This document shows positions 3,320-9,914 of a DNA stretch of 15,760 bases, piece by piece (within the stretch, counting starts at the first letter, position 1; every line of letters starts with the position of its first letter). The translations under genes were made by a program, and so were the position numbers. The stretch covers positions 1-15,760 of the forward strand of contig JAGREZ010000307.1 of NCBI GenBank assembly GCA_020446285.1. Direction: 5' to 3'. The notes below the pieces were generated by a model. The model was not told the origin of the DNA. It saw nothing but the letters and a program-made list of their open reading frames with translations, and searched no databases. The stretch is from Geminicoccaceae bacterium. GTDB lineage: Bacteria; Pseudomonadota; Alphaproteobacteria; Geminicoccales; Geminicoccaceae.

Positions 3320-3763
3320 CTAGATGACGGGGTCCCCGACCGAAACGGCAATGTCGAGGCCGGATGGGAAATAGAGTGTCGGTCCGTGATCGAAGACCAT
3401 GAAGGAGAAGCCGTTCACATCTTCTCCGCCGACCTGCAGGTGATCCTGCACCACCCCCTTCTCGACGACATTCTGTGTGGCGTGCAGTTCGATGGGACTG
3501 TCTCCGGTCAAGACGAGCGCACCGGATTCGTCGGTCAGAAGGTCGGCAAGGTCGAGCGAGATCGGCGCCATCGCAACCTGCGAGCCTGCATCGAATTCTC
3601 CACCGAAACCGAACTCGTTCCCTACATCGATAAGCGACTGTGCCAGATCCTGAAGTTCGGGATAATCCGGTTGCGAGAATTCGTTGTCGTCGACCGATCC
3701 GATCGAAAGGTCCAGATTGTCGGATTCGTGACTGAGGGGATCGATGATGTGCGTTTCGGCCAT
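3320..3763 (-). CDS. Small acidic protein, candidate type I secretion substrate (hypothetical)
   Basis: I do not recognise a named family for the full protein. It has 147 residues with 18 Asp and 10 Glu against one Lys and no Arg, no Cys and no signal peptide, a composition typical of proteins exported by type I systems. Residues about 70-147 look like the terminal domain of large type I secreted RTX/VCBS adhesins: an I-x-LDLADLL segment, then LVLTGDSPIEL, a loop, then GFSFMVFDHGPTLYF and a hydrophobic end (DIAVSVGDPVI). The repeat region that normally precedes this domain is absent. The start is the ATG at 3763, with AAGGG 9 nt upstream. The gene lies downstream of the tolC terminator and next to a complete exporter; its upstream region has a CtrA-type box and a 12-bp palindrome. 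Role as substrate is inference; it could instead be an accessory factor. Confidence 0.7.
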   Translation of the reverse strand: MAETHIIDPLSHESDNLDLSIGSVDDNEFSQPDYPELQDLAQSLIDVGNEFGFGGEFDAGSQVAMAPISLDLADLLTDESGALVLTGDSPIELHATQNVVEKGVVQDHLQVGGEDVNGFSFMVFDHGPTLYFPSGLDIAVSVGDPVI

Positions 3764-3960: not shown

Positions 3961-6003
3961 TCAGTTCGAGGAAGACCCGAACACGGACGAAATGAAGCTG
4001 TCAAAGCTGTCATAACGGGCCGGTTTGCCCGCCCCGCCCTGCAGCTGGTAGGCCGGCTCGACCGGTTCCTCAACATCAACACCAGCTGTCAACGGCACGG
4101 GCTGGGAAGACGTCGTCGTGACGACAACGCGCTCACCACCAGCCGACACCGCATCGGACGTGCCAAAGACGCTCGCAAAGAAGCTGTCGAAGCTGCCATA
4201 GTCGGCAGGCGGCTCCCCGGACGAATCCTCGGCCGACGCAACAACCTCGCTCGAAGCCGGTTCGACCGCGACATCACCCGCCCGGGCCGTGGCAACCGCA
4301 TCATCCGCCACCACCGGACCATCCTCCGTTTCCGCAGCGGATCCGGCAACATTCGCCCAGAATTCGTCAAATGACGTATAGGTCGCCGCACCGCCGGCGA
4401 CGGTCGAGGCAGCCGATGTTTCACTCTCCACCGCCGCCTTGGGTGCCTCCTCAGGCACAACCGGGAGATTGCTGTCCACGGCGTCCGACTTGCCGGTGAA
4501 CGGTGAGATATCCATCGCATCCGCGGGCGGCTCTCCCGCTTCCTCGCCACGCAACGGCCTTGGCTCGGAATCCGGAGCAATCAGCTCCTCGCTCTTGCGT
4601 TCGATGGCCTCCGGTGTCTGCACATCGCCCTCGCCACGGTAGATCGTGACGTTTTCGCGCGGACGGGCGACATCGAAGGTGTTGAGAAGATCACCGACGA
4701 CCGCGAGAACCCGGTAAACCGCGAACTCTTCGGTATATTGCGAGGTGACGAGACTGACCCGGTCGAGAAAGAGCTCGTTCTCCGCATCCAGAACGTCGAG
4801 CAGATCGCGCTGGCCGATTTCGAACTGGCTTGCATAGGCATCGCGCGTGCGTCGCTGCGCCTGTGCCTTGGCCTCGATCGCAACCGTACGGCTGCGCGCC
4901 GTCTCGAGCGCATTGTAGGAAAGCCGCGCATCCTCTTCTGCAATACGACGCGCGTTCTGCAACTGGGCACGAGCCTCGTTCACACGGTGGAACGCTTCGC
5001 GTTCGAGGGCCATGTCGCCGCCACCGCGAAAGATATTGTAACGCATGACGAGAAGCGCCGATGCATCAACATTGCCACCTTTCACGCCATCGAGATTCTC
5101 ACCAGCCGTGGAACCAAGCTCGAGATCGAGGTGCGGATAGAAACCGCTGCGGGCCGCCCTGAGTTCGGCCGCAGCCACATCGACATCGGCTGCCGCGATC
5201 ATCACTGTCGGACTGTTGACGGAGGCAGCACCTGCCGCATCCTCCGGTGAAGGCGGAACGGCGGCGACCGGCGGTTCGCCATGCCCGAGATCCGACGGAC
5301 GCTCGCCAACGACGCGCTGATAGGTCGCGATCGCGTCGAAGAGATTTCCCCGGGCGATCACCTGATTGTCCTGTGCACGCGAAAGCCGGGCTTCCGCCTG
5401 CCGCACATCCGCGATATCGCCGCGACCGCTCTGTTCGAGATCGCGCACCTGAAGCAGGATGCTCTCGTGCTGCTGAACATTGCGTTCGTTCAGGGCGAGG
5501 ATTTCCTCGTTGCGCAGGATATCGAGATGGGCCTCGATGGCATCAAGGCCGATAAACTCGGCCGCCTCATGCACCCGGTACGCCGAACTGTCGACGCGGG
5601 CACGCTGACGCTCCACCTCGCTGTCGACTGCAAATCCGTCAAAGAGCATCTGCGAAAGACGAAGCTGGGCCTCGGAGCGGAAGAGAGTCGTGCTGGCATC
5701 GCCGTCCGGCGGCCGCGTCGTGCGCCGGCGCGTGCCGACACTGTTGGTGAACTCCGGACCGGTCGCCGCGCGCAAATCGACCGAGGGGAGATATTGGGAC
5801 CGCGCGAGGCGCAACTCCTGATCGACCGCACGCCGATCAGCCTTGACAACGCCGATTTCCGGATTTGAATGCAGCGCCGCCCGAATGGAATCCTCCAGGG
5901 AACCTGCATCCGCCACGCCCGCGCCGGCAAGCAACGAAGCCGAAGCCAACAGGGTTGGCAGCGACATGAACTTTCTTGCCGCCACGCCGATCCTTTTCTC
6001 CAT
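3961..6003 (-). CDS. TolC-family outer-membrane channel of a type I secretion system, with long repeat-bearing C-terminal tail
   Basis: This is the outer-membrane exit duct for the type I exporter encoded divergently beside it. From the chosen ATG (6003) the protein has 680 residues: a signal peptide MEKRIGVAARK plus a hydrophobic core, cut after VADA (about residue 33), then SLEDSIRAALHSNPEI, the usual TolC opening, and two outer-membrane efflux (OEP) repeats to about residue 445. Recognisable stretches are RSEAQLRLSQMLFDGF and FEIGQRDLLDVLDAENEL. Typical TolC proteins end near 430-490 residues. Here an Ala/Pro/Ser/Glu-rich tail of about 235 residues follows, with the motif Y-x-S-F-D-x-F at residues 542, 602 and 664. 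The open frame extends upstream to 6099 only through a TTG codon, and a promoter-like sequence lies across that stretch, so the ATG at 6003 is preferred. Its Shine-Dalgarno is weak. A LapE-like role is inferred from context. Confidence 0.92.
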   Translation of the reverse strand: MEKRIGVAARKFMSLPTLLASASLLAGAGVADAGSLEDSIRAALHSNPEIGVVKADRRAVDQELRLARSQYLPSVDLRAATGPEFTNSVGTRRRTTRPPDGDASTTLFRSEAQLRLSQMLFDGFAVDSEVERQRARVDSSAYRVHEAAEFIGLDAIEAHLDILRNEEILALNERNVQQHESILLQVRDLEQSGRGDIADVRQAEARLSRAQDNQVIARGNLFDAIATYQRVVGERPSDLGHGEPPVAAVPPSPEDAAGAASVNSPTVMIAAADVDVAAAELRAARSGFYPHLDLELGSTAGENLDGVKGGNVDASALLVMRYNIFRGGGDMALEREAFHRVNEARAQLQNARRIAEEDARLSYNALETARSRTVAIEAKAQAQRRTRDAYASQFEIGQRDLLDVLDAENELFLDRVSLVTSQYTEEFAVYRVLAVVGDLLNTFDVARPRENVTIYRGEGDVQTPEAIERKSEELIAPDSEPRPLRGEEAGEPPADAMDISPFTGKSDAVDSNLPVVPEEAPKAAVESETSAASTVAGGAATYTSFDEFWANVAGSAAETEDGPVVADDAVATARAGDVAVEPASSEVVASAEDSSGEPPADYGSFDSFFASVFGTSDAVSAGGERVVVTTTSSQPVPLTAGVDVEEPVEPAYQLQGGAGKPARYDSFDSFISSVFGSSSN
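3964..4380 (-). repeat. Three diverged copies of a Y-x-S-F-D-x-F-x-x-x-V-x-G motif in the TolC tail
   Basis: The copies are YTSFDEFWANVAGSA (4336-4380), YGSFDSFFASVFGTS (4156-4200) and YDSFDSFISSVFGSSSN (3964-4014, ending the protein). The Tyr residues are 60 and 62 residues apart, joined by low-complexity acidic Ala/Pro/Ser linkers. A fourth, degenerate unit may lie upstream: GEPPAD (4519-4536), AMDISPFTGK, then SDAV shares its flanks with the second copy (GEPPAD at 4201-4218, SDAV after the motif). The periodic aromatic/Asp motif suggests short linear binding sites in the periplasm; the partner is unknown. Confidence 0.85.
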
Positions 6004-6070
6004 GTGCCCATCCGCCAAGCTGCTGCGAAACCACCGAAAAACCCTAGGAAACCGGCGGTCGTTCGAGCGT

Positions 6071-6099
6071 TTGATATCCGGTGCGCATGGGGTCGTCAA
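6071..6099 (-). promoter_or_regulatory. Sigma-70-type promoter for the tolC-family gene
   Basis: On the minus strand TTGACG (6099-6094) and TATCAA (6076-6071) are separated by exactly 17 nt, close to the TTGACA/TATAAT consensus. Transcription would begin near 6064, giving a leader of about 60 nt before the ATG at 6003. Its position inside the upstream open frame supports that ATG as the real start. Confidence 0.65.
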
Positions 6100-6310: not shown

Positions 6311-8569
6311 ATGGCGCAAGTTTCGACCCGAAGCGCGGAAATCAGCCGCGAAGATCCGCCTGCAGACGACACGGTGCGGCCGGGCCAGCAACCGGCGACG
6401 ATGCCGTCTGCCGAACAGGCGGATGTCGGCTGGCGTGTGCGTCGGTACGATCGCGCACTGCTCGACCCGCTCCTGTCATCGCTCGAAACGCTTGCCTATC
6501 TCCTCGACCGCCCGACCTCGGCGGATGCTCTCAAGGCGGGTCTGCCGCTCGAGGATGGGCTGCTGACGCCCGAGCTCTTCGAGCGCGCGGCCGCGCGAGC
6601 GGGACTGTCCGCGAGGCTCGTCCGGCGCCCGCTGGCGCAGATCGATGCGGCGGACCTGCCCTGCGTCCTGCTCCTTGCGGACCGGCGTTCATGCGTACTC
6701 GCGGCGGGGAACCATGGCGGTCGCCTGCAGATCATCCGCCCGGAAACGGGCCGGGGCGTCGAGGAGATCGACGAAGCCAGGCTCGCGGAAATCTACGAGG
6801 GCTATTGCATCTTCGCGCGTCCGGAACTCGCCTATGAACAGCGTGCGCGGGACGTTCAACAGGAGTCGACAGGTCACTGGTTCTGGTCGACCTTCCTGCG
6901 GCAGTGGCCCACCTATGCCGAGGTGGTGGTCGCGGCCGTCCTGATCAACATGTTCGCCCTGGCGAGCCCGCTTTTCGTCATGAACGTCTACGATCGGGTC
7001 GTGCCCAACAATGCGACGGATACATTGTGGGTGCTTGCCATCGGCGCAATGATGGTCTTCGGTTTCGACTTCCTCCTGAAGACGCTGCGCGGCTACTTCA
7101 TCGACGCTGCCGGACGGATGACCGACGTCAGGCTCGCAAGCGGTATCTTCGAACAGGTTCTCGGAATCCGGATGGCACTCAGACCGCCATCCGCCGGGGC
7201 GTTCGCCAGTCAGTTGCGGGAATTCGAATCGCTTCGCGACTTCTTTACCTCCGCCACGATCACGACGCTTGTCGACCTGCCATTCGTCGCCTTCTTCATA
7301 GCGATCATCTGGTTCATCGGCGGACCGGTCGCCGCCGTTCCAGCGATCGCCCTGCCCATCGTGATCGTCGCCGGCCTGCTCCTGCAGATCCCGCTCAACC
7401 GCGTCGTCAAGCGCAGCGTCAGGGAAGCCGCGCAGAAGCACGGCGTGCTCGTGGAAGCCATCAACGGGCTGGAGACGATCAAGTCCATCGGTGCTGAGGG
7501 CCGACTGCAGCGGGGCTGGGAGGGATTTGTCGCCGCGACATCGAAATCGGGCAACCAGGCCCGCTTCCTTTCCGCAATCACGGTCAATCTCGCCGCACTC
7601 GCGACCAATCTCGTGACCGTCGGCGTGATCGTGGTCGGCGTCTATGAGATCGGCGAGGGCAACATGACGGTGGGTGCGCTTGTCGCCGCCACCATCATCT
7701 CCGGGCGGGCCATGGCTCCGCTCGGGCAGGTGGCCGGACTGCTCACCCGCTTCCATCAGGCGAAGACGGCGTACGATACGCTCGATCGCCTCATGGCGCT
7801 CGAGGTCGAACGTCCACCGAACAAGCGTTTCGTCGATCGCCGCGACCTTTCGGGCGGAATCGAGTTCAAGAATGTCTCGCTCACCTATCCCAACCAGAAG
7901 CTGCCGGCGCTGAGCGATGTCTCATTCCGCATCCAGCCCGGAGAACGGGTTGCGCTCATCGGACGGATCGGGTCAGGCAAGACCACGATCGAAAAGCTCG
8001 TGCTCGGCCTTTACGAACCGCAATCGGGCGCCGTTCTCATCGACGGGACCGATGTGCGCCAGATCGATCCGGCGGATCTCCGCCGCAATATCGGCTGCGT
8101 GCCCCAGGACGTGTTCCTCTTTCAAGGAACGGTTCGCGAGAACATCACCATGGGCACACCGCTCGCCGACGATGCTGCAATGCTCCGGGCCGCGGCGATC
8201 TCGGGCGTGGACCAGTTCGTCGACCGTCATCCGATGGGCTATGACATGAATGTCGGGGAACGGGGCGAAGCCCTTTCGGGCGGCCAGCGACAGGCGATCG
8301 CCGTGGCAAGATCCCTTCTTCTCGATCCGCCCGTTCTCATTCTCGACGAGCCCACGAGCGCCATGGACAACGGTTCCGAGAACCGCCTGAAGAACCGCCT
8401 CGGGGCAGAGCTCGCCGGACGCACGCTCATCATCGTGACGCACCGCGCGTCACTCCTGAGCCTCGTGGATCGCGTGATCGTGCTCGACAATGGCAAGATT
8501 GCCGCAGACGGCCCGAGAGACCAGGTTCTCAAGGCTCTCGCGGGTGGCCAGATCAAGAGTGCCGGGTGA
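6311..8569 (+). CDS. Type I secretion ABC transporter/permease, LapB/LssB type, with inactive C39-like domain
   Basis: This 752-residue half-transporter dimerises in the inner membrane and powers export through the adaptor and TolC-family channel. Residues about 40-185 form a C39 peptidase-like domain that lacks the catalytic Cys, as in exporters whose substrates keep an uncleaved C-terminal signal. Transmembrane helices lie around residues 203-225, 237-258, 315-340, 343-361 and 425-447. The nucleotide-binding domain shows Walker A GRIGSGKTT (551-559), Q-loop Gln 599, signature LSGGQRQ (655-661), Walker B VLILDEP (675-681) and H-loop His 711, so the ATPase should be active. The ATG has GGAG 6 nt upstream. 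The adaptor gene follows after 4 nt. The LapB/LssB subtype is a recognition call from architecture; the substrate is not shown by this gene. Confidence 0.95.
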   Translation: MAQVSTRSAEISREDPPADDTVRPGQQPATMPSAEQADVGWRVRRYDRALLDPLLSSLETLAYLLDRPTSADALKAGLPLEDGLLTPELFERAAARAGLSARLVRRPLAQIDAADLPCVLLLADRRSCVLAAGNHGGRLQIIRPETGRGVEEIDEARLAEIYEGYCIFARPELAYEQRARDVQQESTGHWFWSTFLRQWPTYAEVVVAAVLINMFALASPLFVMNVYDRVVPNNATDTLWVLAIGAMMVFGFDFLLKTLRGYFIDAAGRMTDVRLASGIFEQVLGIRMALRPPSAGAFASQLREFESLRDFFTSATITTLVDLPFVAFFIAIIWFIGGPVAAVPAIALPIVIVAGLLLQIPLNRVVKRSVREAAQKHGVLVEAINGLETIKSIGAEGRLQRGWEGFVAATSKSGNQARFLSAITVNLAALATNLVTVGVIVVGVYEIGEGNMTVGALVAATIISGRAMAPLGQVAGLLTRFHQAKTAYDTLDRLMALEVERPPNKRFVDRRDLSGGIEFKNVSLTYPNQKLPALSDVSFRIQPGERVALIGRIGSGKTTIEKLVLGLYEPQSGAVLIDGTDVRQIDPADLRRNIGCVPQDVFLFQGTVRENITMGTPLADDAAMLRAAAISGVDQFVDRHPMGYDMNVGERGEALSGGQRQAIAVARSLLLDPPVLILDEPTSAMDNGSENRLKNRLGAELAGRTLIIVTHRASLLSLVDRVIVLDNGKIAADGPRDQVLKALAGGQIKSAG

Positions 8570-8573
8570 CAGG

Positions 8574-9914
8574 ATGACCAGGAACAGCGAAGAATCCAAG
8601 CGCACCAACCGTCAGCACCAGCTCAGATCGACATTCTATTCGACCGACGAACTGCGCCCGAAGCTCTTCAGCCACCTGCTGCTCGGTTTCATCGTCGTGA
8701 TCTTCGTCGGGCTCGGGAGCTGGGCCGCCTGGGCGCGGCTGGATGAGGTCACGCGCGGGACCGGACGGGTGATCCCGTCACGCCAGACGCAGATCGTGCA
8801 GAATCTCGAAGGTGGTATCGTTGCCGAGCTCATGGTCCGCGAAGGCCAGGTCGTCGAAGAGAGCGAGGTGCTGATGCGCATCGACAATGTCCGTGCCGCC
8901 AGCGACTATCGCGAGACGAAGGCACGCTACCTCTCGCTGACGGCGGCCATCGCGCGCCTGACGGCAGAGATCAACGAAACCGCCATCAACTTTCCTCAGG
9001 AGGTGCTCTCGGAAGCCCGCGATCTCGCCGAAAGCGAGACCGCGTTCATGGGCTCGCGTCAGGCCGAACTCGAGGCACAGCTCGACATCCTGCGAAGCCA
9101 GGTCATCCAGCGTGAGCAGGAACTGGCGGAACTGAAGACCAAGCTCAACCAGTATGACCGCTCCTACAGGCTTGCTTCGGAGGAGCTCCAGCTGATCGCG
9201 CCACATGCCAAGACCGGCGTCGTGTCCAAATCCGACTTTCTTCAGAAACAGCGTGAGGTGAACGATCTCAAGGGCCAGTTCGAGCAGACCCGCCTCGCCG
9301 TTCCGCGCGTCGAGAGCGCCCTGCGCGAGGCGAACCAGCGGATCGAGAGCGCCTACAGCACATTCCGCTCGGAGGCACAGCGCGATCTCAGCATTCGCCG
9401 CGCCGAACTTGCCGGAATTCGCGAGATCATCGTTGCCGGCGAGGATCGGGTGAGACGCACCGAAGTCCGCTCACCGGTGCGGGGAACGATCAAGAGCGTG
9501 CATTTCAACACCATCGGCGGCGTCATCCAGCCGGGCGACCATCTCTTCGAGATCGTTCCGCTCGAGGACACGTTGCTGGTGGAAGCGCAGGTGCGCCCGG
9601 CCGATGTCGCGTTTCTTCGTCCCGGCCTTCCGGCCACCGTCAAGATCACCGCCTATGATTTCTCGATCTATGGCGGGCTTGCCGGGACGGTCGAGAACAT
9701 TTCGGCCGACACGATCGTCGACGAGCGTGGTGAAAGCTTCTATCGCATGCGTGTGAGGACGGCGGAGAGCTCGCTCGGAACGGCGGAGAAACCGCTCGAG
9801 ATCATTCCGGGCATGACCGCCGAGGTCGATGTGATCACGGGCGAGAAGACGGTGCTCGACTATATCCTGAAGCCGATCCTCAAGGCACGCGACCACGCCC
9901 TGCGCGAACGCTGA
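8574..9914 (+). CDS. Type I secretion periplasmic adaptor (HlyD/LapC family)
   Basis: This membrane fusion protein of 446 residues links the ABC exporter to the outer-membrane channel. A single transmembrane helix spans about residues 34-54. It is followed by a lipoyl half-motif (GTGRVIPSRQTQIVQNLEGG), a long alpha-hairpin of heptad-rich sequence (about 105-300), the second lipoyl half (VRSPVRGTIKSVHFNTIGG) and a beta-barrel ending in GMTAEVDVITGEKTVLDYIL, the normal HlyD-family C-terminus. The ATG at 8574 is used because it lies 4 nt after the exporter stop and starts right before the basic cytoplasmic tail; an earlier start would run inside the exporter gene. Its Shine-Dalgarno is weak (CAGG next to the ATG), suggesting translational coupling. 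I see no T-run terminator after it. Confidence 0.95.
   Translation: MTRNSEESKRTNRQHQLRSTFYSTDELRPKLFSHLLLGFIVVIFVGLGSWAAWARLDEVTRGTGRVIPSRQTQIVQNLEGGIVAELMVREGQVVEESEVLMRIDNVRAASDYRETKARYLSLTAAIARLTAEINETAINFPQEVLSEARDLAESETAFMGSRQAELEAQLDILRSQVIQREQELAELKTKLNQYDRSYRLASEELQLIAPHAKTGVVSKSDFLQKQREVNDLKGQFEQTRLAVPRVESALREANQRIESAYSTFRSEAQRDLSIRRAELAGIREIIVAGEDRVRRTEVRSPVRGTIKSVHFNTIGGVIQPGDHLFEIVPLEDTLLVEAQVRPADVAFLRPGLPATVKITAYDFSIYGGLAGTVENISADTIVDERGESFYRMRVRTAESSLGTAEKPLEIIPGMTAEVDVITGEKTVLDYILKPILKARDHALRER

What the first reader, a model, noticed from the sequence alone, without database searches (positions are those of the whole stretch)
3961..4668. TolC-family channel with a 235-residue periplasmic tail bearing three Y-x-S-F-D-x-F motifs at about 60-residue intervals
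Seen: after a normal TolC core ending near residue 445, an acidic Ala/Pro/Ser-rich tail carries motifs starting at residues 542, 602 and 664, the last one ending the protein, plus a degenerate unit sharing GEPPAD and SDAV flanks. Established: the TolC C-terminus lies in the periplasm and is usually short. Inference: evenly spaced aromatic motifs on flexible linkers resemble multivalent binding sites, perhaps for the adaptor, a periplasmic protein, peptidoglycan, or the substrate.
Basis: partly seen in the sequence, partly recalled or inferred. Interest (0 to 1): 0.72.

Follow-up and report, generated by a model that had tools for sequence, protein, structure and literature searches.

The report
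TolC tail with conserved helical motifs
A bacterial export channel carries a long floppy tail inside the cell envelope with a short, conserved, probably helix-forming motif repeated three times, which looks like a set of docking sites for an unknown partner, perhaps the pump part that the channel must join.

Summary
In this type I secretion channel (TolC/LapE type, Geminicoccaceae), Y-x-S-F-D-x-F begins at residues 574, 634 and 696 of the 712-aa ORF (542, 602, 664 from M33) and nowhere else in the assembly held. A profile trained without this protein scores the copies 35.2, 29.9 and 22.5; the best of 20,000 shuffles of its tail scored 18.3. Of 121 homologues, 61 of 80 with tails of 100 aa or more have the motif and 0 of 41 others; 53 of the 61 have a copy within 12 residues of the C-terminus. 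AlphaFold2 makes each copy a short helix in a disordered tail. The 60-residue spacing is not conserved (46-68 in relatives), the fourth unit is not a motif copy, and the first ~50 tail residues are a separate conserved block. Best reading: a disordered tether whose amphipathic helices dock a periplasmic partner, most likely the HlyD adaptor, as published for the short OprM C-terminal peptide. The partner is not shown. A new variant of a known kind.

The parts
3961..6003 (-). tolC/lapE-type outer membrane channel, 680 aa from M33 (the longest ORF runs 3961-6099, 712 aa)
   Evidence: TIGR01844 type_I_sec_TolC 289 bits against a cut-off of 225; Pfam OEP; Foldseek to TolC structures, best E 1.5e-21; P0002 in the protein database starts at M33
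4516..4665 (-). conserved block after the core (PRExIxIxR..TPExI..KS...PRPLRG.EAGEPPAD), residues 479-528 of the 712-aa ORF
   Evidence: Shared by long- and short-tailed orthologues; AF2 ten-residue blocks of pLDDT 94 and 86 at residues 461-480 of P0002
3964..4515 (-). disordered acidic Ala/Ser/Val-rich tail that carries the motifs (184 residues)
   Evidence: AF2 pLDDT under 50 over 517-539, 557-598 and 614-660 of P0002; the whole 234-residue tail has net charge -30
4342..4380 (-). motif copy 1, YTSFDEFWANVAG (residues 574-586)
   Evidence: Profile score 22.5, 0 of 20,000 shuffles; AF2 helix 545-552 of P0002, pLDDT 82 for 541-550
4162..4200 (-). motif copy 2, YGSFDSFFASVFG (residues 634-646)
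   Evidence: Profile score 29.9, 0 of 20,000 shuffles; AF2 helix 605-613, pLDDT 76 for 601-610
3976..4014 (-). motif copy 3, near the C-terminus, YDSFDSFISSVFG (residues 696-708)
   Evidence: Profile score 35.2, 0 of 20,000 shuffles; AF2 helix 667-675, pLDDT 76 for 661-670; DNA 72% identical to copy 2 over 54 nt
6311..8569 (+). type I secretion ABC transporter (LssB/LapB type), divergent from tolC
   Evidence: TIGR03375 997 bits, cut-off 693; divergent neighbour of tolC in 19 of the 20 relative loci fetched, about 4.6 kb away in the 20th (G031)
8574..9914 (+). HlyD-type periplasmic adaptor, the favoured docking partner (inferred); start codon not settled, the ORF runs from 8490
   Evidence: TIGR01843 416 bits, cut-off 209
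3320..3763 (-). small acidic ORF downstream of tolC, same strand, uncharacterised
   Evidence: No Pfam or NCBIfam match at E <= 0.001; homologues next to tolC in 14 of 24 family loci including the window; AF2 mean pLDDT 66

Best explanation
The C-terminal region of this type I secretion channel is a long disordered tether that leaves the equatorial domain into the periplasm and carries short amphipathic helices (Y-[DE]-S-F-x-x-F-h-x-x-h-x-G), one usually close to the end. Each helix is a docking motif. With three copies per chain and a trimeric channel there are nine sites, so a weakly binding partner could be caught by avidity over a large radius. The most likely partner is the HlyD-type adaptor encoded divergently beside it: the tether would catch and hold the adaptor/ABC complex before the channel and adaptor tips meet. 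Shown by computation: the motif, its conservation, its predicted helices and the predicted disorder between copies. From established TolC topology: the tail is periplasmic and the channel a trimer. Inferred: helix capping by the Ser and Gly, that it binds a protein, that the protein is the adaptor, and the avidity.
For: Motif is non-random and its exact pattern is unique to this gene in the assembly held; present in 61 of 80 long-tailed homologues, the window's own included, near the C-terminus in 53 of the 61; motif identity 0.70 against linker 0.49 over 22 chosen pairs; pooled pN/pS 0.37 in motif against 0.51 in aligned linker codons; mean hydrophobic moment higher at 100 degrees than in other tail stretches (0.36 against 0.24, sd 0.13) and not at 160-170 degrees; AF2 helices at the three copies. 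Precedent for the partner: deleting 13 disordered C-terminal residues of OprM lowers MexA affinity and prevents tripartite assembly, with the authors proposing a transient recruiting contact (PMC8868134: abstract and passages, Discussion read in full); OprM lacking 20 C-terminal residues fails with VceAB and is rescued by a VceA hairpin mutation (PMC4790312 and PMC8277102, passages).
Against: No binding partner was identified. HlyD orthologues are about as similar to the window's in motif-less relatives (63-65% in G006, G030, G023) as in two-copy ones (62-65% in G002, G013, G016), so overall adaptor similarity does not track the motif; site-by-site covariation was not tested. Motif-less relatives keep the same ABC-HlyD-TolC set, so the motif cannot be needed for the basic pump. 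PMC4790312 also reviews a study in which deletion of OprM's C-terminus downstream of its LGGGW motif left the protein functional (passage). The purifying-selection contrast is modest, rests on 91 motif codons, and fails in one of the four pairs with motif codons (L023/L024: 0.47 motif, 0.43 linker). The moment difference is under one sd, and copy 1 of the window is also 0.30 at 160 degrees.
Confidence: 0.45

Rival explanations
1. The motifs dock another periplasmic or envelope partner (an outer membrane lipoprotein, a peptidoglycan-bound protein, or the secreted substrate), positioning the channel or plugging it.
For: A TolC-binding lipoprotein, YbjP, was recently described in Escherichia coli, so accessory partners of the periplasmic part exist (PMC13082787, passages). 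Same motif evidence as for the best explanation.
Against: No candidate partner was found, but none was searched for systematically.
Confidence: 0.25
2. The helices are membrane anchors: they insert into the periplasmic face of the inner or outer membrane and hold the tail there.
For: Predicted amphipathic helices with large aromatics.
Against: The 13-mers are neutral or acidic in 25 of 29 profile instances, and -1 to -2 in the window's copies; helices that bind bacterial lipid are typically basic (recalled, no call).
Confidence: 0.12
3. The motifs are assembly signals: aromatic sites for periplasmic chaperones, or a BAM-type C-terminal signal, that help a channel with a long tail to be assembled.
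For: Aromatic-rich and usually near the C-terminus.
Against: The hydrophobic pattern is on average helical, not alternating as in a beta-signal (the beta-signal pattern is recalled); orthologues without the motif exist.
Confidence: 0.1
4. The motifs bind the acidic protein encoded just downstream.
For: All eight family genomes counted as having two or more copies carry the acidic gene next to tolC: five by the strict motif, three (G015, G026, G028) by looser aromatic-helix variants counted by eye.
Against: Six genomes with zero or one copy carry it too; the tree gives only 2-3 independent contrasts, sign test p 0.5-1. The ORF begins without an evident signal peptide (my reading; no predictor was run), so it may never meet the tail.
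Confidence: 0.05
5. The motifs are chance or low-complexity drift.
For: The tail is low-complexity and its linkers drift.
Against: 0 of 20,000 shuffles reach any copy; the motif recurs in 61 homologues.
Confidence: 0.02

Closest known systems
OprM C-terminal peptide (residues 473-485) of the MexAB-OprM efflux system
   Same: Flexible peptide leaving the equatorial domain of a TolC-family channel, outside the tip-to-tip interface, needed for adaptor affinity and assembly (PMC8868134)
   Different: 13 residues, no repeated motif mentioned in what I read; a multidrug pump, not type I secretion
LapE / TolC of type I adhesin secretion (LapEBC)
   Same: Same channel, ABC and adaptor families (TIGR01844, TIGR03375, TIGR01843); several homologues are named 'adhesin transport system outer membrane protein'
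   Different: Of the 72 loci below the top eight in the named-genome scan, 71 could be read; none has the motif or a tail of 100 aa
Bucl8 of Burkholderia (TolC-like with collagen-like region and low-complexity tail)
   Same: TolC-like channel with a long repetitive C-terminal extension (PMC8277102, passage)
   Different: Collagen-like Gly-Ala-Ser repeats, with fibrinogen binding reported; no aromatic helices mentioned in that passage
YbjP-TolC
   Same: An accessory partner bound to TolC on the periplasmic side (PMC13082787, passages)
   Different: A separate lipoprotein, not a tail motif

Membership tests
TolC family, type I secretion (TIGR01844) | Profile score above the curated cut-off over the core | tested here: met
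   289 bits, cut-off 225, residues 66-474
TolC family, type I secretion (TIGR01844) | TolC fold of the core | tested here: met
   The AF2 model matches TolC, OprM, CusC and VceC structures
LapBCE-like type I secretion system | LssB/LapB-type ABC and HlyD adaptor beside the channel | tested here: met
   TIGR03375 and TIGR01843 above cut-off; kept in relatives
LapBCE-like type I secretion system | Large adhesin substrate with retention module and LapG/LapD control (recalled) | not tested
   No ORF of the window was identified as such; the rest of the genome was not searched for it
OprM-type C-terminal recruiting peptide (as mechanism) | C-terminal segment flexible and outside the folded core | tested here: met
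   AF2 pLDDT under 50 between the motifs; a prediction, not a measurement
OprM-type C-terminal recruiting peptide (as mechanism) | Loss lowers adaptor affinity and assembly | not testable with these tools
   Needs binding and assembly assays
BAM C-terminal beta-signal | Alternating hydrophobic pattern in a C-terminal strand (recalled) | tested here: not met
   Mean moment raised at 100 degrees, not at 160-170; predicted helix. Copy 1 of the window is 0.30 at 160 degrees
Bucl8-like collagen tail | Collagen-like Gly-Ala-Ser repeats | tested here: not met
   Absent from the tail as read

The most novel reading that the evidence does not exclude
A lineage of alphaproteobacterial secretion channels has evolved a multivalent periplasmic fly-casting tether: up to nine similar helical docking sites per trimer that capture and hold a pump component or substrate, tuning secretion by motif number. 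Long tails with other repeats in two other alphaproteobacterial families (f106, f114) would be independent inventions of the same device.
Probability: 0.3. Interest if true: 0.68.

Novelty: new variant of a known kind. Interest (0 to 1): 0.5.

Why it matters
How outer membrane channels find the right adaptor is unsettled; C-terminal parts of OprM and TolC are implicated, and the OprM one is unresolved in structures (PMC8868134). A natural, repeated, well-defined motif gives a 13-residue peptide with which such a recruiting step can be tested directly, in a family where copy number runs naturally from 0 to 3.

Tried and rejected
Chance in low complexity: rejected. A 60-residue tandem unit: rejected. 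Copies 2 and 3 are alike in DNA over 54 nt (72%), and the two other repeat families found in the tail are pairs of 17 nt; Tandem Repeats Finder reports nothing there. The fourth degenerate unit: does not score. Motif shared with other proteins: the exact pattern is only in this gene; a looser pattern over 31 family genomes gave 46 matches against 61 in its reversed control. I read frames in 20 of the 30 loci it returned: besides tolC they were mostly one enzyme with YP[ST]FSRFW, which I recall as acetyl-CoA synthetase, and chance frames; one match in the window's own genome (G000:C331) got no locus that I read. Tracking with the acidic gene: suggestive, undecided; in that tree G028 was left out and G031 was scored as lacking the gene because its copy is not next to tolC. 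One acidic homologue (G031, L044 13844-14287) has WDSFGEF in its N-terminal part; none of the 12 homologues read has it, so I treat it as probable chance. Fold of the acidic protein: weak model, no match at E <= 0.001. Class-wide channels: tails of 21 of 26 loci beyond the family could be read; 20 further matches had no locus and were not fetched, some with open frames over 540 aa. Literature: the listings (some showing only part of the hits, e.g. 12 of 39) held no title on this tail motif; the library lacks most subscription papers; the single Geminicoccaceae+TolC hit (PMC9659566) was seen only as a listing.

Full report
What was checked. The three Y-x-S-F-D-x-F motifs are at 574, 634 and 696. 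The protein is a type I secretion TolC (TIGR01844; Pfam OEP), beside an LssB-type ABC transporter and a HlyD adaptor. Named relatives place it in or near Geminicoccaceae.

Is it more than chance? In the 4.2 Mb assembly held (87% complete) the back-translated pattern occurs three times, all in this gene; the reversed control has none. From 121 homologues (the 120 listed of 384 at E <= 1e-100, the window's own protein among them, plus P0004) I took a set non-redundant at 80% core identity: 44, of which 27 have tails of at least 100 aa. A 13-position profile trained on 26 of these, without the window protein, gave 35.2, 29.9 and 22.5 for the three copies; 20,000 shuffles of the same tail peaked at 18.3. 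With a lax threshold (1% of shuffled tails) the motif is in 19 of the 27 (9 with one copy, 7 with two, 3 with three), and 13 of the 19 have a copy ending within 12 residues of the C-terminus. With a strict threshold over all 121: 61 of 80 long-tailed proteins have it (35, 20 and 6 with one, two and three or more copies), 0 of 41 shorter-tailed ones, and 53 of the 61 have a copy within 12 residues of the C-terminus. The 121 overlap the training set and are related, so this is a count, not an independent test. Nineteen long-tailed proteins miss the strict motif; by eye several of these end in a looser aromatic helix (for example DEFFATVKQAFG or DLWASLKRVFG).

Anatomy. The commonest letters are Y-[DE]-S-F-G-S-F-[WFLI]-x-A-[LV]-[FT]-G: a Ser at a likely helix start, hydrophobics at helical spacing, Gly at the end (the capping reading is inference). 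The mean hydrophobic moment of the motif is 0.36 at the helical angle against 0.24 (sd 0.13) for other tail stretches, and not raised at 160-170 degrees, though copy 1 of the window reaches 0.30 at 160. AlphaFold2 on a 59-row alignment gave mean pLDDT 79 and pTM 0.67, with helices at 545-552, 605-613 and 667-675 of P0002 (blocks of pLDDT 82, 76 and 76) separated by stretches under 50. The first ~50 residues after the core are a different thing: a conserved block found also in relatives that lack the motif and end soon after it, with its own confident helix (464-471). So the disordered part is about 185 residues, not 235. Spacings between copies in ten multi-copy proteins of the non-redundant set, the window's included, run from 46 to 64, and up to 68 in the wider list.

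Conservation. In 22 pairs that I chose, pooled identity was 0.76 in the block, 0.70 in the motif and 0.49 in the linker; in one pair (P0023/P0042) the motif was slightly less conserved than the linker. In six DNA pairs, four of them with motif codons, pooled pN/pS was 0.19 core, 0.37 block, 0.37 motif and 0.51 linker; the motif figure rests on 91 codons and in one pair (L023/L024) was not below the linker. Copies 2 and 3 of the window are 72% identical in DNA over 54 nt.

Distribution. In the family 24 of 31 held genomes, the window's included, have the channel at E <= 1e-80. On a quick tree of 24 channel cores (23 family members without G028, and one outgroup) presence of the strict motif needs 5 changes and multi-copy tails 3. 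Outside, 71 of the 72 loci below the top eight of the named-genome scan could be read, and 0 have the motif or a tail of 100 aa (that scan kept the best 80 of 565 relatives). In a class-wide sample 45 of 385 genomes matched; of 26 loci held beyond the family 21 could be read: none has the motif, but 4 have long tails with other repeats; 20 further matches had no locus and were not read.

Neighbourhood. M23 peptidase, gpmI-type mutase, an acidic ORF, tolC, then divergent ABC and HlyD is the order here, largely kept in the 20 relative loci fetched. The acidic gene lies next to tolC in all eight family genomes counted as having two or more copies, in six with none or one, and in none of the ten others. 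Of these counts, the copies in G015, G026 and G028 (two each) and in G008, G029 and G004 (one each) are looser aromatic-helix variants counted by eye; by the strict motif the multi-copy genomes are five of five with the gene. Only 2-3 independent contrasts exist, so co-occurrence is undecided.

How it most likely works. A transient contact between a flexible C-terminal peptide of the channel and the adaptor is proposed for OprM on binding and assembly data (PMC8868134; see also PMC4790312, and PMC8277102, passages). The simplest account here is an enlarged, multivalent version. The step from a conserved helix motif to adaptor binding is inference; overall adaptor similarity does not track the motif, and relatives without it keep the same pump.

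Noticed in passing
L207, L209, L210 (unnamed family f106) and L205 (f114): Type I secretion TolC relatives with other long repeat-bearing tails: LDPxAPLDP-type repeats with aromatic tips (TPYSLFDE, TPYGLFD, or PYGMF near the end), and AKPVAVKEAPPAEE-type repeats. Long tails may have arisen several times in Alphaproteobacteria.
   Followed up: partly
window 3320-3763 (-): Small acidic ORF family with a conserved C-terminal beta-rich domain and a disordered N-terminus with one predicted helix; a second match in the same genome (G000:C497); found in 10 of 240 alphaproteobacterial genomes sampled.
   Followed up: partly
L044 13844-14287: The acidic homologue of G031 contains WDSFGEF, close to the TolC motif, while its own TolC lacks a tail.
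   Followed up: partly
L073, L099 (named Pelagibius) and L212 (unnamed): LapE-type channels of these alphaproteobacteria end in a short shared aromatic tip (P.QA.VE..SWAEG followed by a few residues ending in D).
   Followed up: no
P0002, P0006, P0007, P0010, P0057, P0069, P0089, P0094: In 8 of the 10 multi-copy proteins of the non-redundant set the first copy has Trp at motif position 8, whereas in 7 of the 10 the last copy has L, I or F there: copies may be specialised.
   Followed up: no
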